NCBI GenBank assembly: GCA_030651895.1
Contig: JAUSBR010000010.1
Span: forward strand, 248,001-312,000
Reading direction: 5' to 3'
DNA from: Sideroxyarcus sp.
GTDB taxonomy: Bacteria; Pseudomonadota; Gammaproteobacteria; Burkholderiales; Gallionellaceae
DNA: 64,000 nucleotides
Shown here in pieces: positions 1,077 through 24,663 of the stretch (position 1 is its first letter; each line of letters starts with the position of its first letter). The notes under the pieces were generated by a model that was given only the letters and a program-made list of their open reading frames with translations, did no database searches and was not told the origin of the DNA. Made by a program: the position numbers and the translations under genes.

Positions 1077-1129
1077 GCACAGCTCCAATCCCGGAAACAC
1101 AATTCCTACTTGAGAAGGAGAATTGAATC

Positions 1130-2768: not shown

Positions 2769-2774
2769 GTTTTT

Positions 2775-2826: not shown

Positions 2827-2843
2827 TTTGCCCACGGTAAACC

Positions 2844-9534: not shown

Positions 9535-9626
9535 GGCGGGTATAGGCCAAATGGCATATATGTCACGAATATCCTTCGTGGTAGCATCGTTGGAAATGTC
9601 GGAAATGTGAGTAAAGGGGAAGTGTT

Positions 9627-12005
9627 GTGGGAAAGAAAAACTCAGGAAGCCCTTTGCTTATAGGGATAGTAGTCGTCATATGGATTTTAGCTTCTGTTCC
9701 CAGAGAGGTGTGGGTTGGACTAGTCATCCTGGTACTCGCCGCGTTGGGTATACGATATTTCTTTATGTCTCCAAGCAGTACTGATGTTTCTTCCTTGTCC
9801 GATGATTCCTTGCCTCAAACTAGTCAGCGAAACACCAGACCATCAACTTCCCGATCTTCGACAGTTGGAGCAAATGTCGATGACTTAGTAACAATCACTT
9901 TCAGCGATGGCAGATCCGGTAGAGAGTATTCGATTCCTACGACTCGTTCCGGTCCTCTCGAAAACGCAAAGTGGATTCCGTCTGGACAAACTACGACGGT
10001 TGCGGGAATTGGAATAGCGCGCGGAATGTTGTATGTCAGTACCGCCCCAAGAAGAGGCTTTCAGGATGCTGATCCAGCACTTATTGACCCAAATCTCAAG
10101 GTTACTTCTGCAGAAATTGATATCTCGTTGCCCCTTACTGGCTACTGGCCGAGCTATGCAACGATAACTCCCGATGCAAGGAAAGCGTATCTACGTTGGC
10201 TTGCTGGCGGCAGACAGGCGCCACTAGCCAATATTGGATATGTATTTTTATTCTTCTATGGTCTAGAACGAAGAGCCCTGGTGGATGCGCAGACAGAGCC
10301 TGATGCCCGTGCAGAGCTCCCATTAATCAAGACTGAAATTCAGCGATTGCTAGAAATTTACGGGGAAAATCACTCGTTCCGCCGTTACGCTACTCAACTG
10401 CTGGACTATGTCACTTTTTCTCACTGGGCTGAGAAAGAGTACTTGGCAGCGCCGCCAAGCGTGCCCGAAAGCTGCTTCGAATTGCCTTTCCGACTTCGCG
10501 TTGGATTGGGGCAGATGGCAGTCGATAAAAAGCCAGTTTTCGCCGATTGGGCACTTGCATGGGCGCTTTCTGATCCAACTATTGTGCGCAGAACTCCCGT
10601 GACTCGATGCGCCGACTTGTTCGCAGTGCTGTTTAAGGAAAAGTATGTCGAATCTTGTGGTGAAGGCATAACTCTAAAAGTCAATCGGACCAAGCTCAGG
10701 ATTTCCTATCATCCAGCATCTTCCGGGCTAAGCTATAACGACTTCTCCCACTCAATTGCGGACCTACCAGATGTGTCGGCTGCAAAGACTCCCGTAACCA
10801 AGTTGCAGCAAATTGTGGATGAATGCACAGCGGAGCTTGATTCCTACAGCCGTTATCTAGGGCGCAATCCAGACAAAGCGGAGACTCTTGATGCCCTATT
10901 GCAGCTCCCCGTTTCACTATGGCCGGCCGCTGTACGCGCAGAGTTAGAGGATATCAAGATTCAAGTCGGGGATGGACTTCTGCTGATGTCCTTTGGCGAA
11001 CTTTCTGGCCGCCTCAAGAGCGCTGGGGGGCTATCGCGCGAAAAAGTTCTGGGCTTAGCGCGCGCCCTTGGAAGCCTACACTTGGGGCTTGAACCAGATG
11101 TGCTGGCTGGCTACAAGACTCCCAAGGCGGAAGACAAAATTGCGCTTTTTGCCACCCCGGCCGAGGATAGCGCTGCGCGCAATGCTCCGGCTTATGCTGC
11201 CGCTGTGGTCACTTTGGATTTGGCATGCGGTGCTGCGCTTGCCGATGGCGCGTTTTCAACACACGAGATGCTGCATTTAACCCGTCAAATCGATTCATGG
11301 GCACATCTCAGTGACGCTCATCGAAAGCGCCTTAAAGCTCATTTGCGCTTAGGCATGGATCAGCCCTTACCCCTTTCTTCTCTCAAGAAGAAAATGGAAC
11401 CGCTGCCGGTTGAGGCCAAACGATCCATTGGGCGCTTCTTGGCTCATCTCACCCAGTCGGACGGGCAGGTTACTCCCGAGGAAGTCAAATTCCTGGAGCG
11501 AGTCTACGTGACACTGAGTCTCGATACACAGCTCCTGTATTCTGATCTTCATGTTGTGCCCGATCTAGGCGGGAAGGGAGTTTTACCTACAGTCAGCGGC
11601 ACACAGAAACCCAAGTCGACGACCGGATTTACCCTCAATGCGGAGCGCATTGTCCAACTGCAGAAAGAAACAGAGGAAGTGTCCGCATTGCTGGCCGGTG
11701 TATTTGCTGAAGAACAGCATAGCGATCCAGATTCAGAGGATGTCACCATTGACGAATCTTCTGATGCACCTGCTGGCATACTTGGCCTGAATGCTGAACA
11801 TTCCGCCTTTGTTCGACGCTTGGTTTCACGGTACAGTTGGCCTAAATCTGACTTGAACGATGTGGCGGCCGATATGGAATTGATGCTGGACGGCACGCTG
11901 GAACATATAAACGAAATGATGCTGGATATGTTCGATACACCTTTGACCGAGGGTGATGACCCCATAGAAATTAATCGAGAACTAGTGGAGCAACTACCCT
12001 TATGA
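9627..12005 (+). CDS. sngA: Shango-type TerB-domain protein SngA
   Basis: A 792-residue protein starting at GTG after AAAGGGGA. Two hydrophobic segments (about 8-23 and 26-46) anchor the N-terminus in the membrane. A Ser/Thr-rich linker and a TerB_N-like region follow, then a TerB-like helical bundle near 520-620 ('LACGAALADGAFSTHEM' and 'LTQSDGQVTPEEVKFLERVY', acidic metal-binding style repeats) and a C-terminal TerB_C-like part. Together with the ATPase and DEAD-box helicase that follow with overlapping reading frames, this matches the three-gene Shango anti-phage system. The membrane anchor suggests sensing at the envelope. Function is inferred from gene order and domain type. Confidence 0.75.
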   Translation: MGKKNSGSPLLIGIVVVIWILASVPREVWVGLVILVLAALGIRYFFMSPSSTDVSSLSDDSLPQTSQRNTRPSTSRSSTVGANVDDLVTITFSDGRSGREYSIPTTRSGPLENAKWIPSGQTTTVAGIGIARGMLYVSTAPRRGFQDADPALIDPNLKVTSAEIDISLPLTGYWPSYATITPDARKAYLRWLAGGRQAPLANIGYVFLFFYGLERRALVDAQTEPDARAELPLIKTEIQRLLEIYGENHSFRRYATQLLDYVTFSHWAEKEYLAAPPSVPESCFELPFRLRVGLGQMAVDKKPVFADWALAWALSDPTIVRRTPVTRCADLFAVLFKEKYVESCGEGITLKVNRTKLRISYHPASSGLSYNDFSHSIADLPDVSAAKTPVTKLQQIVDECTAELDSYSRYLGRNPDKAETLDALLQLPVSLWPAAVRAELEDIKIQVGDGLLLMSFGELSGRLKSAGGLSREKVLGLARALGSLHLGLEPDVLAGYKTPKAEDKIALFATPAEDSAARNAPAYAAAVVTLDLACGAALADGAFSTHEMLHLTRQIDSWAHLSDAHRKRLKAHLRLGMDQPLPLSSLKKKMEPLPVEAKRSIGRFLAHLTQSDGQVTPEEVKFLERVYVTLSLDTQLLYSDLHVVPDLGGKGVLPTVSGTQKPKSTTGFTLNAERIVQLQKETEEVSALLAGVFAEEQHSDPDSEDVTIDESSDAPAGILGLNAEHSAFVRRLVSRYSWPKSDLNDVAADMELMLDGTLEHINEMMLDMFDTPLTEGDDPIEINRELVEQLPL

Positions 12006-13297
12006 GTACCATCCGAGCAAAAGACCGTGATGCAGTAATTCAATCCCTACGAGCTGGGGTAGTCCCACGATCAGGGCAACACCTCGTACAGGTGGGGCGC
12101 GTCAAAGAGCTCGAAGCACTAATGAAGGACGTGGAGCGAATCGCTGATTGCGGCTCTGGTTTTCGCGTTGTGATTGGCGAATATGGATCCGGCAAGACGT
12201 TCTTCTTGAACCTGGTGCGCTCTATTGCTCTTGAGAAGAAGCTGGTCACCATGTATGCCGACCTCAATCCTGATCGAAGACTGCACGCCTCAGGAGGCCA
12301 AGCCCGCTCACTTTACGCAGAGCTGACCAAGAACATGGCAACACGTACTAAACCTGATGGAGGAGCCCTGTCCGGAGTAGTTGAAAAGTTTGTGGCGCAA
12401 GCAGTATCAGATGCCAAAGCGAATGGGACAACAACTGAGGTGCTTATAAAGCAGCGGTTAGAGCATCTGATGGAGATGGTAAATGGCTACGATTTTGCGG
12501 AAGTCATAGCTGCATACTGCCGAGGGTTCGAGGAAGGAAATGAACAGTTGAAGGCAGATGCGATTCGCTGGCTTCGTGGCGAATTTTCCACCAAGACAGA
12601 TGCTCGTGCCGCACTTGGGGTTCGAACAATAGTTGACGACGCGTCGGTATATGACCAACTCAAGCTACTTGCACGATTTGTCCGTCTGGCCGGCTATAGT
12701 GGTTTGATGGTCTGTCTCGATGAACTGGTTAACCTGTACAAGCTAGCGAATACGCAGGCTCGTAATTCAAACTATGAGCAGATTCTTCGTATCCTGAATG
12801 ACTCTTTACAGGGCTCTGCCGAAGGGTTGGGTTTTGTGCTCGGTGGCACACCTGAGTTTCTCATGGATACTCGCCGGGGTCTTTATAGCTATGTCGCACT
12901 GCAGTCGCGACTTTCAGAAAACACCTTCGCCAGAGACGGGATGGTTGATTACTCAGGGCCGGTCATGCGCTTGGCCGGTTTGACGCCAGAGGACTTCTAC
13001 GTTTTGCTTCATAAGCTGAGGCATGTTTATGCTTCAGGGGACGTGGCCAAGTTCCTTCTGCCGGACGAAGCAATACCGATATTCATGGAGCATTGCTCCA
13101 AGCGTTTAGGTGAAGCTTATTTCCGTACTCCTCGGACTACGATAACCGCATTTATTAACCTCCTGGCTGTCTTGGAGCAAAATCCTGGTGCTGATTGGAA
13201 GGAACTGATTGGCGCGACCGAAGTAGCGGTTGATGACGGGGCAGCAGCCGATCTTGCGGTTGATCATGACGACGAACTTGCCAGCTTCCAACTCTGA
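12002..13297 (+). CDS. sngB: Shango-type ATPase SngB
   Basis: A 431-residue AAA-type P-loop ATPase with Walker A GEYGSGKT at residues 59-66 and Walker B LMVCLDE at 235-241. It resembles the DUF2791/BrxD group of ATP-binding proteins found beside helicases in BREX and Shango loci. The start ATG overlaps the stop of sngA (ATGA), and its 3' end overlaps sngC by 32 bases, so the three are made together. No nuclease domain is visible. The BrxD similarity means BREX is the main alternative, but no brxC, pglX or pglZ gene is present in the window. Confidence 0.75.
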   Translation: MSTIRAKDRDAVIQSLRAGVVPRSGQHLVQVGRVKELEALMKDVERIADCGSGFRVVIGEYGSGKTFFLNLVRSIALEKKLVTMYADLNPDRRLHASGGQARSLYAELTKNMATRTKPDGGALSGVVEKFVAQAVSDAKANGTTTEVLIKQRLEHLMEMVNGYDFAEVIAAYCRGFEEGNEQLKADAIRWLRGEFSTKTDARAALGVRTIVDDASVYDQLKLLARFVRLAGYSGLMVCLDELVNLYKLANTQARNSNYEQILRILNDSLQGSAEGLGFVLGGTPEFLMDTRRGLYSYVALQSRLSENTFARDGMVDYSGPVMRLAGLTPEDFYVLLHKLRHVYASGDVAKFLLPDEAIPIFMEHCSKRLGEAYFRTPRTTITAFINLLAVLEQNPGADWKELIGATEVAVDDGAAADLAVDHDDELASFQL

Positions 13298-15506
13298 CTC
13301 CCAAGGATTTAACCAGCTAAACGGACAAATTCAACGCTGGATTTGGAATGAGGGTTGGACCGAATTGCGGGATGCTCAAGAGCGAGCCATACCCGCCTTG
13401 ATAAACGCTGACCGCGATGTAATTGTTGCTGCCGCAACTGCGGCAGGGAAAACCGAGGCGGCCTTTTTCCCCATACTGACGCATTTACTGAGCAAAGCAC
13501 CCGACATCGGTACGGTGCTTTATATCAGTCCTCTGAAAGCGTTAATCAACGACCAATGGAGCCGACTTAACGGCTTATGTGAATCGCTCGAAATCCCCGT
13601 TACTGGATGGCATGGCGATATTTCCTCCAGCCATAAGAAACACTTCCTTAAGAATCCTAATGGCATCTTACTGATTACGCCTGAATCGCTTGAGGCTCTA
13701 TTCGTGATGCGTGGTACAGCCATGCCAGGCCTTATGGCGAACCTCCGCTATGTGGTGGTCGACGAATTGCACGCGTTCATCGGTTCAGAGCGAGGTAAGC
13801 AACTTCAATCACTGCTTCACCGACTAGAGCAAATTGCAGGTCGTCGTGTGCCTCGCGTCGGGCTATCGGCTACCTTGGGTGATATGCGGTTGGCAGCCCG
13901 TTTTCTTAGGCCGTCTGATGCTGATCAAGTGGAACTTATTGAGACGAAGGGAAGTGGTCAGGAGTTGAAAGTACTTCTGAAAGGGTACCTGGCAAAGCCA
14001 CCACGTATTGAGTCCAATCCGGATTTAGACAATCCAGAGATGGAAGATGTCGTCTCTGGAAGTATCGTCGATGTAGCTGCGAATCTCTACAAGGTGTTGC
14101 GTGGCTCAAATAATTTGGTATTTCCGAATAGCCGACAGAAGGTTGAAATCTTCACAGACTTGTTGCGCAGAAGCTGTGAGCGTGACTCTGTTCCAAACGA
14201 ATTTTGGGCGCATCATGGAAACTTGGCCAAAGAGTTTAGAGAAGAGGCAGAGCAAGCTCTAAAGGACGGTACTCGCCCGGCTACGGCAGTTTGCACTACA
14301 ACGCTTGAGCTCGGTATTGATATTGGTTCGGTCAAAAGTATTTGTCAGGTTGGAGCTTCACCATCCGTGGCAAGTCTACGCCAAAGGCTCGGGCGCTCCG
14401 GTCGCAGAAAAGGAGAGGCAGCCATTCTTAGAGCCTACTGCATCGAGCCAGAGCTTCAGCCTAACTCAGGCATTTCGGACTGCTTACGCGAAGGGCTAGT
14501 TCAATCAGTAGCGATGATTCGATTGTTGATAGCTGGGTGGTTTGAGCCGCCGCGAATTGGTGGCCTACATGGCTCAACTTTGATCCAACAAATCCTGTCG
14601 ATTATTGCAGAAAGAGGTGGGGCAAGTGCCGGCCAATTATGGTCAACCTTGGTAGCCCCAGGTAGTCCGTTTGAAGGGTTAACTAGGGACGAGTTTGTTC
14701 TTCTGTTAAAACACATGGGTGAACGGCAGTTGCTGACTCAAGATAGTTCAGGGACTCTCCTTCATGGTGAACTTGGCGAGAAACTCGTCAATCATTATGA
14801 ATTCTTTGCCGCATTTGCCAGTGAAGAGGAGTTTCGATTGCTATGTGAGGGCAAGGTGCTTGGTTCACTGCCTGTCAGTCGTCCGCTGCTACCAAAACAA
14901 TGCATCATTTTTGCTGGACGCCGTTGGCGTGTCATTGATGTTGATACAGAGAAAAAACTCATTGTCGTTGCCCCGGATAGGGGAGGGGCGCCGCCAGCCT
15001 TCGAGGGCGGAGGTTCGATGGTCCATGACCGAGTTCGGCATGAGATGCGGTTGGTTCTAGCTGAGGAAACCTCGGTGCGATTCCTTGATCAAGGGGCACT
15101 CAGTCTATTGGATGAGGCGCGGAGTTATTACAAGCGAGCGGGCTTAGACAAGATCCAGTTGATCCAACGGGGCTCTGATGTTCAACTCCTGACCTGGCGA
15201 GGAGACTGGGTTAATGATGCGCTCGCACTAATGCTCACACAGCATCGCTTGACTGCAAGTAACGAGGGGTTGCTCATTAATGTTTCTGGTGGAGCAAAGG
15301 AGCGAGTCCTCGATGTGCTTGAAGAAATCGCTCAACTTGAGGAACTCGACCCGATTGAACTTCTTGCAAACGCCAACAATATTATTCGGGAGAAGTGGGA
15401 TTGGGCCATGCCCGATACTATGGCACGGCGATCTTTTGCTTCTCTTTGCCTTGACTTAGAAGGGGCGAGGGATGCTGCACGTCAGTTAATTTCAATGAGT
15501 AGTTGA
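13266..15506 (+). CDS. sngC: Shango-type DEAD/DEAH-box helicase SngC
   Basis: A 746-residue superfamily 2 helicase. Motif I is AAATAAGKT (55-63), motif II DELH begins at D166, motif III is 'LSATLGD' and motif VI is 'RLGRSGRR' in the second RecA-like domain. A C-terminal region of about 300 residues resembles Lhr-like helicases. I start it at the ATG at 13266 (MTTNLPAS), which overlaps sngB by 32 bases; an in-frame ATG at 13230 is less likely. It is the last member of the TerB-ATPase-helicase operon and likely translocates on phage nucleic acid. Confidence 0.78.
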   Translation: MTTNLPASNSDSQGFNQLNGQIQRWIWNEGWTELRDAQERAIPALINADRDVIVAAATAAGKTEAAFFPILTHLLSKAPDIGTVLYISPLKALINDQWSRLNGLCESLEIPVTGWHGDISSSHKKHFLKNPNGILLITPESLEALFVMRGTAMPGLMANLRYVVVDELHAFIGSERGKQLQSLLHRLEQIAGRRVPRVGLSATLGDMRLAARFLRPSDADQVELIETKGSGQELKVLLKGYLAKPPRIESNPDLDNPEMEDVVSGSIVDVAANLYKVLRGSNNLVFPNSRQKVEIFTDLLRRSCERDSVPNEFWAHHGNLAKEFREEAEQALKDGTRPATAVCTTTLELGIDIGSVKSICQVGASPSVASLRQRLGRSGRRKGEAAILRAYCIEPELQPNSGISDCLREGLVQSVAMIRLLIAGWFEPPRIGGLHGSTLIQQILSIIAERGGASAGQLWSTLVAPGSPFEGLTRDEFVLLLKHMGERQLLTQDSSGTLLHGELGEKLVNHYEFFAAFASEEEFRLLCEGKVLGSLPVSRPLLPKQCIIFAGRRWRVIDVDTEKKLIVVAPDRGGAPPAFEGGGSMVHDRVRHEMRLVLAEETSVRFLDQGALSLLDEARSYYKRAGLDKIQLIQRGSDVQLLTWRGDWVNDALALMLTQHRLTASNEGLLINVSGGAKERVLDVLEEIAQLEELDPIELLANANNIIREKWDWAMPDTMARRSFASLCLDLEGARDAARQLISMSS

Positions 15507-15595
15507 AAAGTCAGGGAGCAGGGCCGCCTAAGTCATGATCTCCGTGTGATAATAAACTTGGAACTGTCTCAGATATCAGATACCGGGATTCGCAA

Positions 15596-16852
15596 ATGTC
15601 ACTCACAGAAAACCTTGCGGCAAAGCTTTGGCTACGACAGTTTACGCTTCCTGAAGCTCCGCACGCGCTGAAGATGTTGGAGAAGTTTCTATTTATTTCA
15701 GGTGAGGAATTCAGTGACAATCTTAGCCATCTTGCACTTAGTTCATTTCCGGCTGGCAATGCTGTTGCTTTTTTTGTTGAGAGGGAGCTGCGGACAACAC
15801 GGTCTGGCTTTCCATGCAAGATGTACAAGGAAACGGAAATTGGAATGGGTAGAGGCCTACCCAAGCGACTTCGGGCCGACGGTGCCGCTTTGCCACCAGT
15901 TGAATCTCCAAGAAACGATCAACAAGATATTGGTAGTGAAGGAATCGTCGCTTCTGTATTAAGTCAGTTGTGCAGGCAGAATAGGAAGAAGTTTGTGCTT
16001 CACCCTAGCGCTAATGAGATTAGAAAGCGCCGAGTGGATCATTTTGTTATTGTGACTGACTTCATTGGAAGCGGGAAGCGGGCATTGAGAATGCTGGAGT
16101 CACTGTGGCGAGTTCGATCCATAAGAAGTTGGCACAGCGGTGGTCTAATTAAATTTTCAGTCCTGAGCTACAGTGGAACGGCTGAGGGAGTAAAAAAGAT
16201 AAGAAAGCACCAGAGCAATCCAAACGTGCGAATGGTGTGCAAATGTCCCACTTTGAATAATTCTTTTAAGGGAGATGAGCTCCAAGCGATTACCGATATT
16301 TGCCGAAATCATTCTCCGGATCCTAGCGAGCCACTTGGTTACAAAGATACCGCCGCTTTGATTGCATTTGAGCACTCATGCCCGAACAATGTGCCTGCAA
16401 TATTTCATAAATCCAAGGACTCAAGGCGTAATCCATGGCACCCTCTATTTCCGTCCCGCGTAACAACACATTTTGCTCGTTCTCAGCCAAAATTGACTGA
16501 GACCCAGCTCGACAAAACGGCGCTTGATGTTTTGAAGCTCCCCAGTATCGCAACCTCAAAGGCTTTCCAAAGATCAACACCTGAGCAGTGTCGTGTTGTA
16601 GTCGTTCTCGCTGCACTAAGCAAGGGTTATCGGGACCTGGATGAGTTGGTTACAGTCACTGGCAGACGGCTGTGGGAAATCTCTTCAGCAATTTCAAAAG
16701 CTCAGGACGAAAAACTAGTTGATCACAATGGCCGTCCAACACAGCAGGGCTTCGCATTGCTGAAGCGACTTAATAGAGTCAAGCGCCCGGCAGAAATAGC
16801 GGAAAAATCCAAAAAGTACTATTATCCAACATCGTTGAGAGCGCCAATTTAA
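15596..16852 (+). CDS. Retron-associated phosphoribosyltransferase-like effector
   Basis: A 418-residue protein. Residues 151-164 carry 'VIVTDFIGSGKRAL', a variant of the PRPP-binding loop of type I phosphoribosyltransferases. A segment 'FEHSCPNNVPAIFH' near 345-360 recurs in PRTase-like proteins linked to retrons. The last 90 residues look like a winged-helix domain. It precedes the msr-msd RNA and the reverse transcriptase on the same strand, the order seen in type III-like retrons, where this protein is the toxic effector held in check by RT-msDNA. The 5' msr repeat (a1) lies inside its last codons. Substrate unknown; subtype is my inference. Confidence 0.68.
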   Translation: MSLTENLAAKLWLRQFTLPEAPHALKMLEKFLFISGEEFSDNLSHLALSSFPAGNAVAFFVERELRTTRSGFPCKMYKETEIGMGRGLPKRLRADGAALPPVESPRNDQQDIGSEGIVASVLSQLCRQNRKKFVLHPSANEIRKRRVDHFVIVTDFIGSGKRALRMLESLWRVRSIRSWHSGGLIKFSVLSYSGTAEGVKKIRKHQSNPNVRMVCKCPTLNNSFKGDELQAITDICRNHSPDPSEPLGYKDTAALIAFEHSCPNNVPAIFHKSKDSRRNPWHPLFPSRVTTHFARSQPKLTETQLDKTALDVLKLPSIATSKAFQRSTPEQCRVVVVLAALSKGYRDLDELVTVTGRRLWEISSAISKAQDEKLVDHNGRPTQQGFALLKRLNRVKRPAEIAEKSKKYYYPTSLRAPI

Positions 16853-17058
16853 TTGGTCAACTAGCATCCCCTGGATGCTTCAGGGGCAGATCTCGGTTTC
16901 TAGAGATCACGGGATCGGACTTCCGTTTCCTAATGGATGAACTCACGCCTACTGGAGAGACGGTACCTCCAACGTTCGCTCGTTGCCTTGCGACTTGAGG
17001 AGGTTCCGTCCGACCAGTCGGACTCAAAGGTAGATGAACCACTGGCACTCTCAACGAT
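16831..17058 (+). ncRNA. Retron msr-msd RNA with a1/a2 repeats
   Basis: The ends are a 16-base inverted repeat with one mismatch: a1 16831-16846 (ATCGTTGAGAGCGCCA) and a2 17043-17058 (TGGCACTCTCAACGAT). Just inside a1, CTAGC at 16861-16865 offers a TAGC context like the branching guanosine of Ec86 (candidate G at 16864). Two msr hairpins follow: AGCATCC/GGATGCT (16863-16879, or alternatively CCCCTG/CAGGGG, 16868-16886) and GATCTC/GAGATC with a GGTTT-containing loop (16889-16908). The msd holds a long imperfect stem, ACTGG...GGTACCTCC (16951-16970) against GGAGGTTCC...CCAGT (16998-17018). These parts match the standard retron RNA plan. Confidence 0.8.
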
Positions 17059-18206
17059 TCCTGAACGAAGGTCGAGACAAGCACGTTTCGCCTGAAGTGC
17101 TCGCGCACGCTGACGCAATAGCAAAGTCAATTAAGCAGGCTAATGCTGCTATCCCTCCAATCTTCACGCTTAGGCATTTAGCTCACGAAGTCGACGTTCC
17201 ATATCTGTTCCTTAGAGACGTTGTTGCACGCACAAGAGATTTCGAACCATACGCGGTCTTCAGGCTTCGCAAGTCAACAGTTGGACACCGGCCAGACCGC
17301 TTTAGGTTTATTTGCGCACCTCACCCGCACTTGCTTAAGACTCAGCGCTGGATTCATGAACACATTCTAAGCAAGGGGATGCGACACAGTGCGAGTGGTG
17401 CTTATCATCCGGACTCAAGGATTGTGGATACAGCCAAAGTCCATTGCGGCGCAAAATGGATGGTGAAGCTTGATGTTACAAATTTCTTTGAATCCATTCT
17501 TGAGCCGAGAGTCTATGAAGTATTTCAAGACTTCGGTTATCAGCCTTTAGTTTCATTCGAACTGGCGCGGATATGTACTCGAGTGCGCTTTTCGGGAAAT
17601 CCGATAAGGCCTAAAGGGCGCAGTTATTCAATCAAGAGTTATGCGCATAATCCTTTTATTGGGCATTTACCCCAAGGGGCACCCACCAGTCCAATGCTTG
17701 CAAACCTCGCATCATATGACCTTGATGAAGCTCTTACATCGATGGCAAAGACATTCGGTATCAACATCAAATACACTCGGTACGCTGATGACATTACGTT
17801 CTCAACTACAGATAAAGCATTCTCTAGAGAAAATGCCATGAAGCTAATTAATCAAGCCTATGAAGAGCTAAAGTCGCATGGTCTTTGGCCAAATCTTTCA
17901 AAAACCCACATCGTCACACCTTCTGCTCGGAAGATTGTTCTTGGGTTGCTCGTCGATGGAAAAGAGCCTCGCTTGTCACGAGAATTTAAGGACGCGCTGC
18001 GAATGCATATCCATTTTTTAAAGAAACCTGACATTGGCCCAGTAGGGCACGCAGAGCGACGCGGATTTGACACAGTAATAGGGCTTCAACATCATGTATT
18101 CGGCTTAGCTGCATTCGCTATAGGAATTGAAAACAACTGGGGACGCGCCAGAATGGCTGAGCTTCGTTCAGTAAACTGGCCCACCGCGAACATGTATTTC
18201 CCTTGA
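17034..18206 (+). CDS. Retron reverse transcriptase
   Basis: An RT of at most 390 residues. The palm has D147 in 'KLDVTNFF', 'QGAPTSP' at 214-220 and the catalytic YADD at 250-253. The retron-specific region X (usually NAxxH) reads TAKVH at 133-137, and the thumb motif (usually VTG) reads VLG at 302-304. It primes from the msr-msd RNA just upstream to make msDNA. The ATG at 17034 puts the a2 repeat inside the first codons, so translation may begin later (for example at the GTG encoding residue 22) or the RNA end may overlap the coding sequence. It stops 17 bases before the next gene. Confidence 0.9.
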   Translation: MNHWHSQRFLNEGRDKHVSPEVLAHADAIAKSIKQANAAIPPIFTLRHLAHEVDVPYLFLRDVVARTRDFEPYAVFRLRKSTVGHRPDRFRFICAPHPHLLKTQRWIHEHILSKGMRHSASGAYHPDSRIVDTAKVHCGAKWMVKLDVTNFFESILEPRVYEVFQDFGYQPLVSFELARICTRVRFSGNPIRPKGRSYSIKSYAHNPFIGHLPQGAPTSPMLANLASYDLDEALTSMAKTFGINIKYTRYADDITFSTTDKAFSRENAMKLINQAYEELKSHGLWPNLSKTHIVTPSARKIVLGLLVDGKEPRLSREFKDALRMHIHFLKKPDIGPVGHAERRGFDTVIGLQHHVFGLAAFAIGIENNWGRARMAELRSVNWPTANMYFP

Positions 18207-18223
18207 TAGTCGAGGCTGTCTAG

Positions 18224-19213
18224 GTGTCGGCGCCCAATGACATATTTGTTCCCTTAGTAGCCGAAGATAGGCTGCATCGTCAGTTTCGTGATCTTCGAGA
18301 CTCGCCTTTCCACTACGAAGCTAGATTGCTAATTAATACTCTGTACCAGCGCATGGGACTTCCTGGCAAGGGCTTCATCCGTAAATTTCAAACTGATGGG
18401 TTCCACTCACATTTATTTGAAATTGCCTGTTTCGCGTACCTCGAGAGCGGTGGCTTTATTCCAGATAGAGCTTACTCATCACCAGATTTCATGGCTTCGC
18501 GAGATGGATTTAGTCTGGCCGTCGAGGTAACCACTTCTAATCCATCTGAAGATCAATCAGCTGACATATCGTTACGGATGTTGGCAGCTTTATCTGAGGA
18601 CGAGATTGCAGCAAAGGTAAATGTAGAGTTTCCAAATCGAATGATTTCGATACTCAAGAAGAAAATGAATCGTCGATATGACCAACTTCCTCAATGTGCA
18701 GGAAAGCCGCTTGTGCTAATGGTCGCACCTTTCTTTGAGGCGGGTTCTGTTCATTACACTGATGATGCTTTGGTCGACTGCCTGTATGGGATACGTGATG
18801 CAACGACGGGATTCTTCTCTCTCCCGAAAGCGGAATCAGTCAGCGCGGTGTTGTATTGCAATGCCTTCACTGTCGCGCGCTTCTTTCGCTTATCCACTCA
18901 TTTTGAAAGCAACGAAGCGCCAATTGCAATACGAGAAGGAATGTACTACGCAGTTGAATCAGAGACAGCGCTATCTGTGAAGGAATTTCGGTACCGTGTT
19001 GGTAGTCAATCAGCGCCACGAGAGTCTTGGTCGGAGGGAGTGACACTTTTCCTAAATCCCAACGCGTTAGTCCCTGTCTCAAAGGAAGTCCTGCCTAGTA
19101 CAAGTTCATTTTCTATCCAGGACGGACACCTTGTCCGTGAAGTTCATGGATTTCATCCTGTAATATCTAATATGTTCGTATATGTAAATGATGCGTATTC
19201 CGGCCACTCGTGA
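18224..19213 (+). CDS. PD-(D/E)XK nuclease-like protein, 3' end disrupted
   Basis: A 329-residue protein starting at GTG, 17 bases after the RT gene, so probably in the retron operon. E66 in 'HLFEIACFAYLE', P87-D88 in 'SPDF' and E101-x-T103 in 'AVEVTT' form a PD-(D/E)XK-like core in which the usual lysine is threonine. Secondary-structure order (helix, hairpin with PD, strand with E-x-T) fits. The last four codons and the stop lie in a 23-base direct repeat that looks like an IS end, so the original C-terminus was probably different or longer. It could be an accessory retron effector or an unrelated restriction-type gene. Confidence 0.5.
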   Translation: MSAPNDIFVPLVAEDRLHRQFRDLRDSPFHYEARLLINTLYQRMGLPGKGFIRKFQTDGFHSHLFEIACFAYLESGGFIPDRAYSSPDFMASRDGFSLAVEVTTSNPSEDQSADISLRMLAALSEDEIAAKVNVEFPNRMISILKKKMNRRYDQLPQCAGKPLVLMVAPFFEAGSVHYTDDALVDCLYGIRDATTGFFSLPKAESVSAVLYCNAFTVARFFRLSTHFESNEAPIAIREGMYYAVESETALSVKEFRYRVGSQSAPRESWSEGVTLFLNPNALVPVSKEVLPSTSSFSIQDGHLVREVHGFHPVISNMFVYVNDAYSGHS

Positions 19214-19290
19214 TCACCTGTTCCGGTAATACGTGATCAGCAATTCCAGTTTGATCTAATCACTCAATCCGCCGATCATGAGCGCCGGAA
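19198..19290. mobile_element. Decayed IS end with short repeats (IS21-like)
   Basis: Two direct copies of a 23-base unit, TTCCGG-xxAxx-CGTGATCA, begin at 19198 and 19221, with a third partial TTCC at 19244. An inverted variant (TTCCGGCGCTCATGATC on minus) lies at 19290-19274. Multiple short repeats with GTGATCA cores near the tips are typical of IS21-family ends. No transposase remains, so this would be a remnant. The family call is from memory of such ends only. Confidence 0.4.
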
Positions 19291-19492
19291 ATTACGGTCG
19301 GCTGGTTTTTGGCATAAACGCAGCCGTAGAATGGGTAGCGATCTAGTCAAAATATCAGGCCCAGTATTGACGTCGTCCCATTCTCGGACATTAGTAGTGA
19401 CCTCCTCAATTACTAAGAAGCAGACATTAATCAGCTATGATGTGGCGAACCATCCTGGTGACCCGAAAACCTAAAACCAACGACTATGAGCT
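19214..19492. other. Gap after the retron operon
   Basis: Apart from the IS-like repeats up to 19290 I see no gene here. The stretch 19300-19490 has stops in all frames and no strong hairpin or promoter. It separates the retron operon from the next plus-strand gene. Confidence 0.4.
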
Positions 19493-21130
19493 ATGAAATT
19501 CCATCGCCTTAATCGCTATCGTACTGGCGGGACTAGCAGCAATTTGAAACTTAGCTATCCAGCTCCACGAACCCCTAACGGGCGCGTCTATCGCTTCTCG
19601 CCCAACGAGCAAGCGCATCCTCGTCATTTTGTTCTCGGCGATGTGGTTGCCGACATCAACGTGACAGACGCATTTCGGGCTCGGATGAAGCATGATCCAA
19701 GAACCACACAAACTGTTTGCCCATATAGTGGCACCATCGCCGAAGACGATGCTTTCGTACACCCGGATGATGTCAAGGCTGCCGTGGAAATGGTGAGGCA
19801 CGACGCCGTCCAGGATGTTCAGGATGCTCTGTCGGAGATGTTTAAGAATGCGTTCAAAGGAAGTTCTTCTAACAACAGTCTCATAAAGGTTACCGCAAGC
19901 GTCAAACGAAGCATACCCAAGCCCAAGCCACGCTTTGCACGGCAAGACCTCATGCGCGAACTGGTATGCGACCATTGTGGGCGGGACTATGGCGTCTTTG
20001 CAATTAGCCTCTTCTGTCCAGATTGTGGCGCGCCAAATCTTAGGCTGCATTTCGTACGAGAAGCCGAATTAGTCGACGATCAAGTATCACTCGCGGAAGA
20101 AATAGCCGTGGACAAGGAAGAACTTGCTTATCGCCTCTTAGGCAACGCCCATGAGGATGTACTCACGGCGTTTGAAGCAACACTAAAAACCGTCTATCTT
20201 CATGGGAAGTCAATAACAAGCATCAGTCCGCTTCCCAAGGTTGGCAACGACTTCCAGAACGTAGAGAAGGCGCTCAAGCGGTTCGAGGAACTGCGCCTAA
20301 ATCCATTCAATAGCCTTACCGAGGACGAAATGGAAGAGCTGCGACTCAACATCCAAAAGCGCCATGTTATTGGACACAATCTGGGAGTCGTAGATGACAA
20401 ATTCGCAGCCCACGATAATGATGCCAAAGTCGGCGAGACCGTAATTCTCGTCGGCGACGACATTCGGAAGTTCGCGGCGATTAGTCAAAAGGTTATCGAC
20501 AACCTTGACACCTGGCTCGGCGGCTCCCCATCTCCGACGATTCAAGCTCCCTTGTTGTCCATGAATATAGAGCCTAAAAGTACTTTCGCTGATCCGAAAA
20601 ACCTTATGGCGCTTGATCTTCAACTCTCGCTCTTTGCGCGAAAGGTTGGGGTCTGGATCGCCGAGCACTGTTCCGATGGTAGATGCACTCACGTCAATCT
20701 TGAGCAGTTTAAGGCGGCTTTTACGGAGAATTCCGAAATCGAACTCGAAGAAGCGATTGCTGAACTCGAAATTGACGGCTTCGTGGAGATGGCTCACACA
20801 ATGGGCGGTGGCATACCGCACTTCTGCCCGACGCTCGATCTCTATCTGACATTCGATGGACCAGCGTTTGGCAGAGATCCGATAGCCGATACGGTAACTG
20901 TCGCCGAATTGGCACTGGCAGGTTCAGATAGCGTCAATGCAGAGGACATCTTTTCCCAAACCGGCTGGGACATTCGCAGATTCAACCCCGTTTTCGAACA
21001 TGTTGCCTCCCAGATTCCGGACGGTCGCGTTAGCCGCTCCTATGGCACACAGTTCAGTGTGTCGTTCTTCTGCCTTCTCCCTGAAGATCGAGTCCGGGTA
21101 AAACGTTTGATCTCACGCCTAAAAAGCTAA
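19493..21130 (+). CDS. Zinc-ribbon protein of unknown function
   Basis: A 545-residue protein I cannot assign. Residues 159-178 form a clear zinc ribbon, C159-x2-C162-x12-C175-x2-C178. Another Cys pair is not obvious, although 'VCPYSGTIAEDDAF' (75-88) resembles a degenerate knuckle. The middle (200-350) is acidic and helical with 'HVIGHNLGVVDDKFA', resembling HEPN-like or DUF-type helical bundles. The end (about 370-540) looks like paired winged-helix segments. There is no signal peptide or membrane segment. It is alone, between the retron operon and the recombinase, and could be a single-gene defence factor, but nothing proves it. Confidence 0.6.
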   Translation: MKFHRLNRYRTGGTSSNLKLSYPAPRTPNGRVYRFSPNEQAHPRHFVLGDVVADINVTDAFRARMKHDPRTTQTVCPYSGTIAEDDAFVHPDDVKAAVEMVRHDAVQDVQDALSEMFKNAFKGSSSNNSLIKVTASVKRSIPKPKPRFARQDLMRELVCDHCGRDYGVFAISLFCPDCGAPNLRLHFVREAELVDDQVSLAEEIAVDKEELAYRLLGNAHEDVLTAFEATLKTVYLHGKSITSISPLPKVGNDFQNVEKALKRFEELRLNPFNSLTEDEMEELRLNIQKRHVIGHNLGVVDDKFAAHDNDAKVGETVILVGDDIRKFAAISQKVIDNLDTWLGGSPSPTIQAPLLSMNIEPKSTFADPKNLMALDLQLSLFARKVGVWIAEHCSDGRCTHVNLEQFKAAFTENSEIELEEAIAELEIDGFVEMAHTMGGGIPHFCPTLDLYLTFDGPAFGRDPIADTVTVAELALAGSDSVNAEDIFSQTGWDIRRFNPVFEHVASQIPDGRVSRSYGTQFSVSFFCLLPEDRVRVKRLISRLKS

Positions 21131-21260
21131 CTCAATTGTGGCACCTATGATGGCAGCTTCGAACGAGGAGTACTGGTTGGCAGTGCAGAATAATCGGACT
21201 GAGTGTTCAGATTCGACGGAATATACAAATGAAGTCCGAAGTTTTTCACACATAGGTGAC

Positions 21261-22442
21261 TTACCACTGTAGACGATGTTTTTCTTCCGTTTCTTTGTGC
21301 CGAAGATCATCCTCCGAATGAAGGTATTTGCTTGTTGTTGCTATCGACTCATGGCCTAAATTGTCTCGTACATGTTTGAGATCCATATCTTCGCTCGTCA
21401 TATTTGAAGCAGCTGTATGTCTCATCCAATGTGCAGATGCCATTTCAATCTCTGATGCTCGTGCACTAAACTCTGGGCCGCGTTCACGTAGTCGGCTGGC
21501 AGTTCTATCGAACACCTCTTTGACTATGGTGTGCACCGCGCATCGTGTTAGCGAACGTTGCTGGGTGCCGATTGGCAAGAGGAGGGGAGTGGATTCTCCG
21601 GGAAGGGGGAAGGGGGCATACCCCTTTTCGCGTCGGTAGCGCGTGAGTTCAACCATAAGCTCATTGGTTGCCGGAACGATGCGGCTCTTTTCACCTTTGC
21701 CCGTAATCTCCAGCCACCAGCGATCTTCTCCCTTATCTCGGCGGCAGAAGAATCCTTGCATCGTGTTTTCCGTGACTTCGGATATGCGTACACCGCAGAT
21801 GTAGAGCAAGGAGAATAGCCACCTCACCCTGAAGTAGTGTTCCCGGTCGCGACTGGTCTCTTTCGGCATCAATTCGATTGTTGTCTTTACTTCTTGCCAA
21901 AGCGCTTCGTCCAGGAAGCGAGTTACCCTTGGCTTTGCTTTGCGCTGACGTTGGCGCGACAGGGAGAGTGGATTGCCCACTAAGTATCCGGCGGTTACGA
22001 GCCAAGCGAACATCGCATTCAAAATGACGACCGCTTGGCGCTGGCTAGTCTTGGAGAGTGGTCCAATAAATGGTCTCCATTCTGGGTGGTGGCGTGCCCA
22101 TTTGCGCCCCGTGCCCATTACCCAACGGTCAGCGGGTTGCGGATCTTCCAGGAATCGCTGATACATCAGCAAGTCTTCATGAGTCATCGAGGACAGAGGC
22201 TTCTTGAGTTCGATAACCGACCACAACAGAAGGCGCTCAGCCTCCTTGCGATAGCTGTCCAAGGTCGTCTTTGTATCAGCATAGCGCGCCAGCCATGCCC
22301 TTATTGCCTCGATATCATTCTGTGCCGCGATTTGAGGGCGGTTGCCCGTCGCACGGTTGATGCCATGTTGGCCATTCAGTTCAACCGGCAATTCCATTGT
22401 GTCGATCGGAGCGATTCCCGAGATTCGAACAAGATTGGTCAT
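21261..22442 (-). CDS. Tyrosine recombinase (phage integrase family)
   Basis: A 393-residue site-specific recombinase with the full catalytic set: R219 ('GVRISE'), K252 ('GKGEKSR'), H338-x2-R341 ('HWMRH'), H364 ('LGHES') and the nucleophile Y373 ('SKYLH'). Residues about 40-150 form a SAM-like core-binding domain. It is divergent from a KfrA-like coiled-coil protein, and an 11-8-11 inverted core site lies in the 150-base interval. This is the arrangement of tnpS-tnpT cointegrate resolution modules (Tn4651 type). It may instead integrate the island. No Tn3-type transposase is in the window. Confidence 0.9.
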   Translation of the reverse strand: MTNLVRISGIAPIDTMELPVELNGQHGINRATGNRPQIAAQNDIEAIRAWLARYADTKTTLDSYRKEAERLLLWSVIELKKPLSSMTHEDLLMYQRFLEDPQPADRWVMGTGRKWARHHPEWRPFIGPLSKTSQRQAVVILNAMFAWLVTAGYLVGNPLSLSRQRQRKAKPRVTRFLDEALWQEVKTTIELMPKETSRDREHYFRVRWLFSLLYICGVRISEVTENTMQGFFCRRDKGEDRWWLEITGKGEKSRIVPATNELMVELTRYRREKGYAPFPLPGESTPLLLPIGTQQRSLTRCAVHTIVKEVFDRTASRLRERGPEFSARASEIEMASAHWMRHTAASNMTSEDMDLKHVRDNLGHESIATTSKYLHSEDDLRHKETEEKHRLQW

Positions 22443-22491
22443 CTTCGTGGGCTTTCAGGTCTGGTCATTTTCAAAATTGGTACGGTTTCAT

Positions 22492-22521
22492 TATTTGACA
22501 TTAGAGTAATAATGTCAAATA
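22492..22521. promoter_or_regulatory. Predicted recombination core site (res/rst- or dif-like)
   Basis: Perfect 11-base inverted arms, TATTTGACATT (22492-22502) and AATGTCAAATA (22511-22521), flank an 8-base centre. Arm and centre sizes are those of tyrosine-recombinase core sites. Nine bases, ATTTGACAT, are shared with the XerD-side arm of the dif site 1.3 kb away. A further 6-base inverted repeat, TAATAC/GTATTA around ATC (22550-22564), may bind the KfrA-like partner. The site could also act as the operator of the divergent genes. Confidence 0.6.
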
Positions 22522-22592
22522 TCCTGCTCATAAAATTGTATTTTCAACGTAATACATCGTATTATTAATCATTAAGTTCGATCAGACACTTC

Positions 22593-23561
22593 ATGATTAC
22601 AAATAACATCAACGAACAGCAGCTACAGGTCGAGATTGATCAGTTGAAAATTCAATTTCCCCAAACCAGGGATTTGTACCGCGAAGCTTGTGTGTTGCTG
22701 TTTTTCCGCCATGGCATTACGCCCACAGCTAATAAGCTCTACCAGCTTGTGCGCAGGGGAAGCATGTCTGCTCCAGCAGAGGCCCTGAATAAGTTCTGGC
22801 TTGAATTGCGCGAAAAAAGTCGGATTCGGATTGAATCCCCAGACATTCCGGAGGAGTTGAAGGAATCCGCCGGCACATTTATTTCCACCCTATGGCGGCA
22901 AGCTCAAGAAGCTGCTGTTTCGAGCCTTTCCGTACATATTGCTGATGCCAATGATAAGGTGATGCAGAGCATGAAAGAGGCGGAGACGGCCAGCAGGCAT
23001 ATGGCAGAAGCCGAGCTCGAGCTCGAAGCTGCTAAAGCCCAGCTTAACAACGCTGAAACACAAATCACTGAGCTCGAAAAGATTCATGCTGTAGATATCA
23101 ATGCATCAGCCACCCAAGAAAAAGCGCTTAAAGCGCTTATAGCCGAGCGCGATTCTTTATCCCGCACTCTTGAAGAGACAAGAAGCAGATTTAGCGAGGA
23201 TCTTGGTAGGTTAAGTGACTCACTTTTGAGGACGGAGAACCAATACCGATCCTTGGAAAAGAAATCTCTTTTGGAACTTGATAGAGAGCGTCAAAACGTC
23301 ATCAAGCTAGAAAACGTTACGGCCAAACTGCGAGAATCATCAAAAACTGACCAAGATAGATGCCGAAAAGACATATCATTGCTCCAGGACACAATCTCTA
23401 ACTTGAAAGAAAAACTGGGGGCGCTGAACGGAAAGATAAGTGAGATCACCGGGCAGCAAAAAGAAATTTCCGCTAAGCTGAAGCAAACGGAAAAGAAGTT
23501 AGAAGCAGCAAATTCAAAAATATTTCGGCTAACAGCGCAGCGCCCGAAGAAGGCAAACTAG
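22593..23561 (+). CDS. KfrA/TnpT-like coiled-coil DNA-binding protein
   Basis: A 322-residue protein. The first 110 residues form a KfrA_N-type DNA-binding domain ('LLFFRHGITPTANKLYQLVRRGSMSAP', then 'LNKFWLELREKSR'). From about 120 to the end it is an almost unbroken, Glu/Lys-rich coiled coil. Proteins of this plan include plasmid KfrA regulators and TnpT, the accessory factor that helps TnpS resolve cointegrates. The divergent recombinase and core site upstream favour the TnpT role. It could autoregulate from the same interval. Confidence 0.72.
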   Translation: MITNNINEQQLQVEIDQLKIQFPQTRDLYREACVLLFFRHGITPTANKLYQLVRRGSMSAPAEALNKFWLELREKSRIRIESPDIPEELKESAGTFISTLWRQAQEAAVSSLSVHIADANDKVMQSMKEAETASRHMAEAELELEAAKAQLNNAETQITELEKIHAVDINASATQEKALKALIAERDSLSRTLEETRSRFSEDLGRLSDSLLRTENQYRSLEKKSLLELDRERQNVIKLENVTAKLRESSKTDQDRCRKDISLLQDTISNLKEKLGALNGKISEITGQQKEISAKLKQTEKKLEAANSKIFRLTAQRPKKAN

Positions 23562-23622
23562 CAGGATTTGCTTTTGCAGTTTGGATGTCTATGCACCACG
23601 GATGCAACCGGAGTGTCAAATC

Positions 23623-23761
23623 ATCCCCGGAATTGGGAAAATTGAATGGCGGGGCAGTCAGCTGAACTATCCCCAGAGTTGTGAAAATGCTGCTGAATTA
23701 TTCCCAGATTTGCGAACAATCTCCCCACGTAGTGAAAACAAATATCCCAGAATTGTGAACA
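23623..23761 (+). repeat. Five direct repeats next to dif
   Basis: Five imperfect copies of ATCCCCAGAATTGTGAAAA start at 23623, 23669, 23700, about 23721 and 23744, all in the same orientation. The best are ATCCCCAGAGTTGTGAAAAT (23669-23688) and ATCCCAGAATTGTGAACA (23744-23761). Spacing is uneven (46, 31, 21, 23 bases), unlike CRISPR. They may be protein-binding sites for a transposase at an element end or for the KfrA-like protein. Confidence 0.65.
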
Positions 23762-23800
23762 CCGCCGTGATCCTGCAGGCCTTTTCTCTTTCCTTCTGCG

Positions 23801-23828
23801 ATTTGACATAATATACATTATGCGCAAT
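23801..23828 (-). other. dif: Chromosome dimer resolution site dif
   Basis: Read on the minus strand: XerC arm ATTGCGCATAA, centre TGTATA, XerD arm TTATGTCAAAT. Compared with E. coli dif this is identical at 25 of 28 positions, with the centre unchanged; differences are the first two bases and one in the XerD arm. XerCD, activated by FtsK, resolve chromosome dimers at this site, which marks the replication terminus. It lies exactly where the variable island meets the conserved tatD operon, as expected if elements integrate at or beside dif. Confidence 0.9.
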
Positions 23829-23895: not shown

Positions 23896-24663
23896 TTACA
23901 GCTGCTTCAGGAACAATCGGTTGAAATTTCGAGTTGTGGCCATTCCCACTTCTTCGAGCGTTATGCCGCGCAACTTCGCGATCTCTTCAGCCACATGTTT
24001 GACGTAGGCCGGCTGGTTGGTTTTTCCACGGTACGGTGTTGGCGCCAGGTACGGCGAGTCGGTCTCGATCAGGATCTTGTCGAGCGGGATGTTTGTTGCG
24101 ACCTCCTTGATGAGGGTCGCATTCTTGAAAGTCAGGATGCCGGAGAACGAGATATGGAAGCCAAGTTCGATCGCAGCCCGGGCGACCTCCAGATTCTCGG
24201 TGAAACAGTGCATCACGCCGCCCGCTTTCCCGGCCTCTTCCTCGGCCATGATGCGCAGGGTATCAGCTGCCGCTGAACGGGTATGGATGATGAGCGGTTT
24301 GCCGCATTCCCTGGCGGCACGGATATGGGTGCGGAAACGCTCGCGCTGCCATTCCAGGTTGCCGGTCAGGCGGTAGTAATCCAGCCCGGTCTCGCCGATG
24401 GCGATGACTTTTGGATGTTGGGCAAGACGCACGATCTCGGCTTGGGTCGGCTCGGCGTCCAGTTCGTAGTCAGGATGCACGCCGACTGAGGCATAGAGGT
24501 TCTCGTGGCGTTCAGCCAGATCCAGCACTTCTGGAAAGCTCAACAGGTCGACCGAGACACATAGTGCATGCGTGACGGCATTGGCGCGCATGTTGGCAAG
24601 GATGCCCTCCAGGTCATCACTCAGACCGGGAAAGTTCAGGTGACAATGGGAATCGATGAACAT
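23896..24663 (-). CDS. tatD: TatD-family metal-dependent DNase
   Basis: A 255-residue TatD/YcfH hydrolase. It opens with 'FIDSHCHLNF', where the two His bind metal, and has 'IGETGLDYYR' near 92-101, 'PLIIHTRSA', 'MHCFTENLE' and 'ILIETDSPYLAP', the ordered metal and phosphate ligands of the TIM-barrel family. It is a 3'-5' DNase or deacylase acting in the cytoplasm. It ends the large minus-strand operon after holB (6 bases between), as ycfH does in E. coli, and is the last core gene before dif. Confidence 0.9.
   Translation of the reverse strand: MFIDSHCHLNFPGLSDDLEGILANMRANAVTHALCVSVDLLSFPEVLDLAERHENLYASVGVHPDYELDAEPTQAEIVRLAQHPKVIAIGETGLDYYRLTGNLEWQRERFRTHIRAARECGKPLIIHTRSAAADTLRIMAEEEAGKAGGVMHCFTENLEVARAAIELGFHISFSGILTFKNATLIKEVATNIPLDKILIETDSPYLAPTPYRGKTNQPAYVKHVAEEIAKLRGITLEEVGMATTRNFNRLFLKQL

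What the first reader, a model, noticed from the sequence alone, without database searches (positions are those of the whole stretch)
23801..23828. Chromosomal dif site exactly at the island/core boundary
The 28 bases match E. coli dif at 25 positions including the whole central hexamer. Immediately left is the defence island; 67 bases right begins the conserved tatD operon. The terminus therefore hosts a stack of anti-plasmid and anti-phage modules, as expected if elements enter by Xer recombination or beside dif. The core genes right of dif run toward it, consistent with leading-strand orientation.
Basis: partly seen in the sequence, partly recalled or inferred. Interest (0 to 1): 0.8.

Follow-up and report, generated by a model that had tools for sequence, protein, structure and literature searches.

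The report
Tn7-like defence transposon beside dif
A block of anti-phage and anti-plasmid genes arrived as one jumping element that landed 33 bases from dif, the site where bacteria separate joined chromosomes, and relatives of the element sit at the same kind of site in other bacteria, which suggests that it uses dif as a landing beacon.

Summary
The dif site is real: window 23801-23828, minus strand, 25 of 28 matches, the only copy found in the 73%-complete genome, at the GC-skew switch. The island on its left is one 33,938-bp Tn7-like transposon (TnsA/B/C + TniQ at one end, a tyrosine recombinase + KfrA pair at the other) carrying Wadjet, Shango and a type III-A retron. It has terminal inverted repeats and a 5-bp duplication (TGATC); a genus member keeps the empty site. 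Its right end lies 33 bp from dif, in the loop of a tRNA-Val terminator hairpin. It did not enter by Xer recombination.

The closeness to dif looks like targeting. Of five elements with both ends resolved, four have the right end on the XerD side of dif: 33 bp (this one), 32 bp (complete chromosome, other family), 37 bp (same genus), 45 bp (Virgibacillus, other phylum). The fifth, on a plasmid, is not at a recognisable dif. In 8 of 8 strong-family genomes where I located dif, tnsB is on the dif contig; for outgroup TnsBs, 0 of 5. My paper searches listed nothing on a Tn7-like element at dif; IS1202-family IS are the nearest precedent. How dif is read is inferred.

The parts
23801..23828 (-). 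chromosomal dif (in window + orientation: XerD arm left, XerC arm right)
   Evidence: 3 mismatches to E. coli dif, only match in own genome; 0 in shuffles; skew switch
1..23767 (.). right 23.8 kb of the 33,938-bp Tn7-like transposon (whole: contig C16 237830-271767; window = C16 minus 248000)
   Evidence: inverted ends, duplication, empty site in G688
23742..23767 (-). right terminal inverted repeat, reads CGGCGGTGTTCACAATTCTGGGATAT inward
   Evidence: pairs with left end CGGCGGTGTTCACAAAGCTGGGGATA at C16 237830
23671..23761 (.). repeated 17-bp motifs of the right end (23671-23687, 23702-23718, 23745-23761), probable transposase-binding sites
   Evidence: the repeat finder family D1; whole-genome motif search hit only the two ends
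23768..23772 (.). right copy of the 5-bp target duplication TGATC (left copy C16 237825-237829)
   Evidence: single copy in empty site G688
23773..23785 (+). right half of the tRNA-Val terminator hairpin (left half beside tRNA-Val at C16 237733-237805)
   Evidence: fold of the G688 empty site has TGATC as its 5-nt loop
22593..23561 (+). KfrA_N-domain protein, candidate resolution helper (TnpT-like in position)
   Evidence: PF11740 6.4e-13
22493..22520 (.). perfect 11-6-11 palindrome ATTTGACATTA-GAGTAA-TAATGTCAAAT, candidate resolution core; arm 10 of 11 like the XerD arm of dif
   Evidence: identical 28-mer in Methylotenera mobilis 13 and on a G019 contig
21261..22442 (-). tyrosine recombinase related to XerC/XerD (below their cut-offs), divergent from the KfrA gene
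   Evidence: PF00589 5e-17; XerC model 3.3e-27, 95.6 bits against cut-off 335
2844..9534 (+). Wadjet type I: JetA 2844-4280, JetC 4910-8320, JetD 8317-9534; ORF 4180-4923 in the JetB position was not scanned
9627..15506 (+). Shango: SngA 9627-12005, SngB 12002-13297, SngC 13230-15506
   Evidence: PADLOC 5.7e-104, 3e-182, 1.2e-280
15596..18206 (+). retron type III-A: PRTase 15596-16852, reverse transcriptase 17034-18206
18224..19213 (+). PD-T7-1-like protein
   Evidence: PADLOC PDLC04073 1.9e-62; no Pfam family
23896..24663 (-). tatD, first core gene right of dif, running toward dif
   Evidence: PF01026 3.2e-85; conserved beside dif in the genus

Best explanation
The site is the chromosomal dif. 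The island is one Tn7-like transposon of a divergent TnsABC-TniQ lineage that uses dif, or dif occupied by XerC/XerD, as its attachment site and inserts its right end about 32-45 bp outside the XerD arm with a 5-bp duplication. Shown: boundaries, inverted repeats, duplication, empty site, TnsB/TniQ homology, and the same right-end-to-dif arrangement in four elements with both ends resolved. Inferred: TniQ (perhaps through bound Xer proteins) selects the target, TnsC bridges, TnsB joins the ends. Also inferred: in this copy, whose TnsA homologue lacks the endonuclease residues, transposition is replicative, and the tyrosine recombinase + KfrA pair resolves the cointegrate at the dif-arm-like site between their genes. 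dif stays intact and the defence genes ride as cargo.
For: Own element: TGATC at both ends, inverted ends, 33 bp from dif; empty site in G688. TnsB profiles hit solved TnsB (1.4e-15, 1.8e-16) with invariant D, D, E; own fourth gene TniQ 1.9e-7. G120, complete 4.59-Mb chromosome: TSD ACAAG, 32 bp. G019: TSD GCATT, 37 bp. Virgibacillus L144: TSD CGGCT, 45 bp from a Bacillota-type dif. G501: end-type repeats directly left of dif, left part off the contig. Strong-family tnsB on the dif contig in 8 of 8 genomes with dif located, outgroup 0 of 5 (Fisher p 0.0008). Combined distance p about 8e-9 without own, 1.4e-7 also without G019.
Against: The resolved plasmid member (L088) is not at a recognisable dif, and 63 plasmid records hold relatives, so dif is not the only target. 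In G475, G463 and G593 dif lies 16-89 kb away on the tnsA side, and in G291 66 kb away, with no resolved end at dif. dif was not found in G685, G180 and G141. The own insertion is also 23 bp after a tRNA-Val. Most assemblies are drafts, so 'other contig' is weak evidence. Own and G120 ends start with CG, not TGT. No activity was tested.
Confidence: 0.75

Rival explanations
1. The attachment site is tRNA-Val or its terminator hairpin; dif is near only because tRNA-Val, dif and tatD are neighbours in this genus.
For: The duplication is exactly the 5-nt loop of the tRNA-Val terminator. CAST I-D homes 30-33 nt downstream of a tRNA (PMC10293859, passage) and Tn7-like elements are said to use sites downstream of tRNAs (PMC8649781, passage). 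tRNA-Val lies within about 110 bp of dif in 9 of 28 dif-bearing genus genomes by exact motif, 12 if three variant tRNA ends are counted by eye.
Against: No tRNA at the ends of the other three resolved dif-adjacent elements: G120 has tRNA-Val 4.4 kb from its left end, none was found in the G019 flanks or L144. 0 of 48 scanned TnsB-relative loci hold a tRNA.
Confidence: 0.1
2. A general bias to the replication terminus (TnsE-like targeting, or tolerance of insertions there), with no reading of dif.
For: Four strong members lie 16-89 kb from dif without a resolved end at it (p 1e-4 for these alone). The tRNA-Val to dif interval also holds other insertions in the genus (0.3, 0.5, 1.8, 39.8 and 60.7 kb) in genomes without this TnsB.
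Against: Distances of 32, 33, 37 and 45 bp, same side and same element end, in unrelated genomes.
Confidence: 0.09
3. Entry by XerCD recombination at dif (IMEX-like).
For: An element close to dif that carries an Xer-like recombinase and a dif-arm-like site.
Against: Only one dif found in the own genome, and only chance-level half sites at the left junction; the break is 33 bp outside dif with a 5-bp duplication and inverted repeats, and the empty site is intact.
Confidence: 0.02
4. The element-borne tyrosine recombinase, not TniQ, finds dif, because its site has XerD-like arms (compare TnsF).
For: Arm ATTTGACATTA against dif ATTTGACATAA; TnsF, a tyrosine-recombinase-derived selector, exists (PMC10293859, passages). 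Recombinase/KfrA-type ends lie about 39-42 bp from the XerC arm in Methylotenera and on a G019 contig.
Against: No hit to this recombinase in the resolved G019 C10 and G120 elements or on the G501 contig, nor in L144, yet all are at dif.
Confidence: 0.04

Closest known systems
Tn7 and Tn7-like transposons (PMC8649781, PMC10293859; passages seen)
   Same: TnsA/B/C + TniQ gene order, arrays of end motifs, 5-bp duplication, right end next to the attachment site, rich defence cargo including Wadjet and retrons
   Different: Attachment site appears to be dif; own TnsB gives no Pfam match; own TnsA lacks the endonuclease residues; a recombinase + KfrA pair at the right end; own termini CG, not TGT
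IS1202 family / ISAjo2 (PMC10132070; abstract and section 15 seen)
   Same: TnsB-like transposase, 5-bp duplication, inserted beside chromosomal dif and plasmid pdif sites
   Different: 1.5-kb single-gene IS, 5 bp from the XerC arm; here TnsABC-TniQ elements of 7-34 kb, 32-45 bp from the XerD arm
Tn4651-type TnpS/TnpT resolution module of Tn3-family transposons (PMC7157771; passages seen)
   Same: Tyrosine recombinase and helper gene divergent around the resolution site
   Different: Sits in a Tn7-like element; helper is a KfrA_N protein (whether TnpT is one was not tested)
TnsF target selectors of Tn6022 (PMC10293859; passages seen)
   Same: A tyrosine-recombinase-fold protein associated with a Tn7-like element
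   Different: TnsF is inactivated and targets comM; here the recombinase keeps R, H-x-x-R, H, Y by eye, and resolved dif-adjacent relatives lack a hit to it
IMEX, elements integrated by XerCD (recalled)
   Same: Close to dif
   Different: No dif duplication found; duplication and inverted repeats of a DDE transposase instead

Membership tests
chromosomal dif | 28-bp site with conserved XerC/XerD arms and 6-bp centre | tested here: met
   25 of 28
chromosomal dif | at the replication terminus / skew switch | tested here: met
   contig and complete relative G004
chromosomal dif | recombined by XerC/XerD | not testable with these tools
   needs an assay
Tn7-like transposon | TnsB-family DDE transposase | tested here: met
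   family profiles hit solved TnsB; D, D, E invariant in 8
Tn7-like transposon | TnsC-family ATPase and TniQ/TnsD beside it | tested here: met
   AAA_22 1.1e-10 and TniQ 1.9e-7; relatives' profile hits TniQ/TnsD chains. The own TnsC candidate alone found no solved relative
Tn7-like transposon | repeat arrays in both ends and a 5-bp duplication | tested here: met
Tn7-like transposon | TnsA endonuclease (not universal in the group) | tested here: not met
   homologue present but A/R/V/K at the E/D/E/K positions; tnsA is uncommon in some Tn7-like clades (PMC8649781 passage)
Tn7-like transposon | termini 5'-TGT (typical, not used here as defining) | tested here: not met
   own, G120 and L088 start CG; G019 and L144 start TGT
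IS1202 family | 1.5-kb IS with a single transposase gene, 5 bp from the XerC arm | tested here: not met
   34 kb, 33 bp from the XerD arm
IMEX (Xer-integrated element) | element flanked by two dif sites | tested here: not met
   one dif; left junction searched
TnpS/TnpT resolution module | divergent recombinase and helper with the site between them | tested here: met
TnpS/TnpT resolution module | homology of the helper to TnpT, and cointegrate resolution | not tested
   no TnpT sequence compared; activity needs an assay

The most novel reading that the evidence does not exclude
A whole lineage of Tn7-like transposons, in Pseudomonadota and Bacillota, has dif as its attachment site and reads it through TniQ and/or bound XerC/XerD. 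Because most bacteria keep a dif, this would be a near-universal landing site that needs no particular gene, with transposition tied to the chromosome-dimer-resolution machinery and delivering anti-plasmid and anti-phage cargo there.
Probability: 0.7. Interest if true: 0.82.

Novelty: new variant of a known kind. Interest (0 to 1): 0.75.

Why it matters
Known Tn7-like elements home to sites such as glmS, tRNA genes or comM (PMC10293859 and PMC8649781, passages). A lineage that homes to dif would explain how defence islands gather at the terminus, would tie transposition to the Xer machinery, and would give an attachment site shared across phyla that can be tested with a target plasmid carrying or lacking dif. 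The TnsA homologue without its catalytic residues beside a two-gene tyrosine resolvase is also a good test case for the proposed switch to replicative transposition.

Tried and rejected
Xer/IMEX entry: rejected (one dif found, 5-bp duplication, inverted repeats, intact empty site).

tRNA-Val as the attachment site: kept as a rival, but no tRNA lies at the ends of the other three resolved dif-adjacent elements.

The tyrosine recombinase as target selector: not favoured, since the G019 C10 and G120 elements, the G501 contig and L144 gave no hit to it.

A res-site-hunter reading, from L130 (Tns genes lie between a recombinase and a KfrA gene) and L088 (insertion about 90 bp from the start of a tyrosine recombinase gene): noted, not established. 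No convincing palindrome beside the L088 ends.

Family ends by a general scan: of 55 loci tested, 2 gave a repeat + duplication (L088, L144). The ends of G291, G475 and G696 were sought and not resolved; those of G463 and G593 were not sought.

dif in other relatives: 21 of 62 genomes or records had a dif-like match. Of the 45 genomes behind related-loci hits, 11 had one (some with 3 mismatches); only Methylotenera mobilis 13 could be placed on the scaffold of its tnsB (66 kb). For L104 it is on another contig, for L127 the tnsB is on a plasmid, and the rest could not be tied to contig names. L130 and L145 were not held. Three plasmid records had no match.

Related recombinases: 42 of 399 order genomes. 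Of the other 41, 12 had a dif-like match; the nearest recombinase is within 1.4 kb of it in 4 (G204, G102, G214, G807), 8-95 kb away in 5, on another contig in 3. They are 38-76% identical to ours and may belong to several element types.

The search around G501's order found no further member in its other 18 genomes.

Full report
THE SITE. Window 23801-23828 (minus strand) matches E. coli dif at 25 of 28 positions with an identical central hexamer. It is the only match with up to 3 mismatches in the own genome, which is 73% complete; shuffles of the window give none. The cumulative GC skew of the 398.7 kb of contig read is highest in the 8-kb bin starting at C16 272001 (dif is at 271801), with a broad top; in the complete genus member G004 the sampled skew changes sign across its dif, 11 of 11 against 9 of 9. 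Right of dif, tatD lies within about 110 bp in 13 of 16 genus relatives, and 0.5, 2.8 and 5.6 kb away in the other three.

THE ISLAND IS ONE TRANSPOSON. Left flanks of dif in several relatives align to C16 235972-237830, so 34 kb has come in between that flank and dif. Left junction: tRNA-Val, half a terminator hairpin, TGATC, CGGCGGTGTTCACAA. Right junction: TTGTGAACACCGCCG, TGATC, the other half hairpin, dif. Genus member G688 has the empty site with one TGATC, which is the 5-nt loop of its hairpin. The element is C16 237830-271767, 33,938 bp, G+C 0.486 against 0.576 and 0.593 around it; its right end is window 23767, 33 bp from dif. Both ends carry further copies of the terminal motif.

THE MACHINERY. 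At the left end (locus L024, left of the window) lie four genes in the order and sizes of TnsA, TnsB, TnsC and TnsD. The fourth matches TniQ and the third an AAA domain; the first two have no Pfam match. TnsB relatives show invariant D, D and E and their profiles hit solved TnsB chains; the own protein alone did not. The relatives' TniQ profile hits TniQ/TnsD chains. The TnsA homologue has A/R/V/K where seven relatives keep E/D/E/K (six Bacillaceae records and a Klebsiella plasmid); G019's TnsA matches the TnsA model. Recombinase-like hits occur in 20 of 84 loci examined and in none of those seven; loci differ in length and two were chosen by KfrA hits, so this is weak. At the right end a tyrosine recombinase and a KfrA_N gene diverge around a perfect 11-6-11 palindrome whose arm matches the XerD arm of dif at 10 of 11 positions. 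The same 28 bases occur in Methylotenera mobilis 13 and on a G019 contig. Divergent genes with the site between them is the TnpS/TnpT layout (PMC7157771, passages). Inference: replicative transposition, then resolution, as Benler et al. proposed for tnsA-less Tn7-like elements with resolvases (PMC8649781, passages).

THE CARGO. Wadjet type I, Shango, retron III-A and a PD-T7-1-like protein are in the window; an AbiU2-like HEPN protein is left of it. The terminus 'stack' therefore came in as cargo of one element, though how the cargo was gathered is unknown.

IS DIF THE TARGET? Relatives were sought with TnsB. A Burkholderia aenigmatica plasmid has the same layout (Tns genes, defence genes, recombinase, KfrA), ends CGTCCGA... 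and duplication TCGGC, and is not at a recognisable dif. Chromosomal relatives were then checked against dif. G120 (complete 4.59-Mb chromosome, other family of the order): 14,189 bp, duplication ACAAG, right end 32 bp from the XerD arm. G019 (same genus): 30,144 bp, GCATT, 37 bp. Virgibacillus sp. YIM 98842 (L144, Bacillota): 7,078 bp, CGGCT, 45 bp from a site with 4 mismatches to the recalled B. subtilis dif; no match with up to 5 mismatches in 1.157 Mb of other loci. In G501 the contig holds tnsA-B-C, end-type repeats, then dif, but is cut on the left. In two Methylotenera and on a second G019 contig, ends of a similar kind lie about 39-42 bp from the XerC arm; their partner ends were not found. 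That G019 contig has low G+C (0.385 in its first 5 kb) and a dif like that of Methylotenera, so it may be foreign to the bin.

COUNTS. Strong-family TnsB genomes (E up to 1e-30): own, G019, G501, G685, G475, G463, G593, G180, G141, G291, G120. dif was located in 8 of these 11, and tnsB is on the same contig in 8 of 8: own 31 kb (element end 33 bp), G501 1.4, G019 5, G120 11.5, G475 16, G463 36, G291 66, G593 89 kb. Outgroup TnsBs (G072, G441, G478, G652, G012, G013; one clade): dif located in 5 of 6, same contig in 0 of 5; most are drafts. Fisher p 0.0008; combined distance p about 8e-9 without own, 1.4e-7 also without G019, 1e-4 for the four without resolved ends. These treat genomes as independent and were set up after the pattern was seen, so they are rough. 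In the genus, strong TnsBs occur in 2 of 34 genomes, both at dif. In the tree the dif-adjacent members are scattered through the ingroup.

ALTERNATIVES. The own insertion is also at a tRNA-Val terminator, and the tRNA-Val to dif interval holds other insertions in the genus (0.3, 0.5, 1.8, 39.8 and 60.7 kb in G005, G687, G004, G023 and G010), in genomes without this TnsB; what they are was not worked out. No tRNA lies at the ends of the other three resolved dif-adjacent elements. A regional terminus bias would not by itself give 32-45 bp.

LITERATURE. Searches pairing Tn7-like or TnsB with dif, Xer, terminus, defence island or chromosome dimer listed no paper that I recognised from title, abstract start or passages as describing a Tn7-like element at dif; one search listed 15 of 179 hits, and the library holds open-licence papers only. 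The nearest precedent is the IS1202 family, 5 bp from the XerC arm of dif and pdif (PMC10132070, abstract and section 15). Benler et al. list PF00665 as their TnsB seed (passage), and none of the four family TnsBs I scanned matched it, so that survey may have missed the lineage (inference).

SHOWN AND NOT SHOWN. Shown: dif, transposon boundaries, Tn7-like membership, repeated right-end-to-dif adjacency. Not shown: which protein reads dif, whether XerC/XerD are needed, activity of any part. The species was not identified.

Noticed in passing
L130 7994-14585 (Paraburkholderia ginsengiterrae): The Tns genes lie between a recombinase gene (74% identical to ours) and a KfrA gene, as if inserted into another element's resolution site.
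   Followed up: partly
L253 13581-18582 (Methylotenera mobilis 13): dif is flanked on both sides by recombinase + KfrA pairs that face it, as if two elements bracket dif (positions in the joined G696 region 73581-78582).
   Followed up: partly
contigs of genus members G010, G023, G004, G687, G005: The tRNA-Val to dif interval varies from about 50 bp to 60.7 kb across the genus: an insertion hotspot with unrelated content.
   Followed up: partly
L242 / G475: A relative 16 kb from its dif carries Shango directly behind its Tns genes; SngB is 67% identical to ours.
   Followed up: no
window 51309-53393: Low-G+C patch (about 0.45-0.48) in 0.60 core, with ORFs 51309-51782 and 52119-53393 that match no Pfam family.
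   Followed up: no
window 19493-21130 and L024 18460-19557: Cargo proteins of 545 and 365 aa without Pfam or NCBIfam match; candidates for unknown defence genes.
   Followed up: no
G214, G807 (order relatives): A more distant recombinase (about 40% identical) lies 0.83-0.85 kb from dif; its element type is unknown.
   Followed up: no
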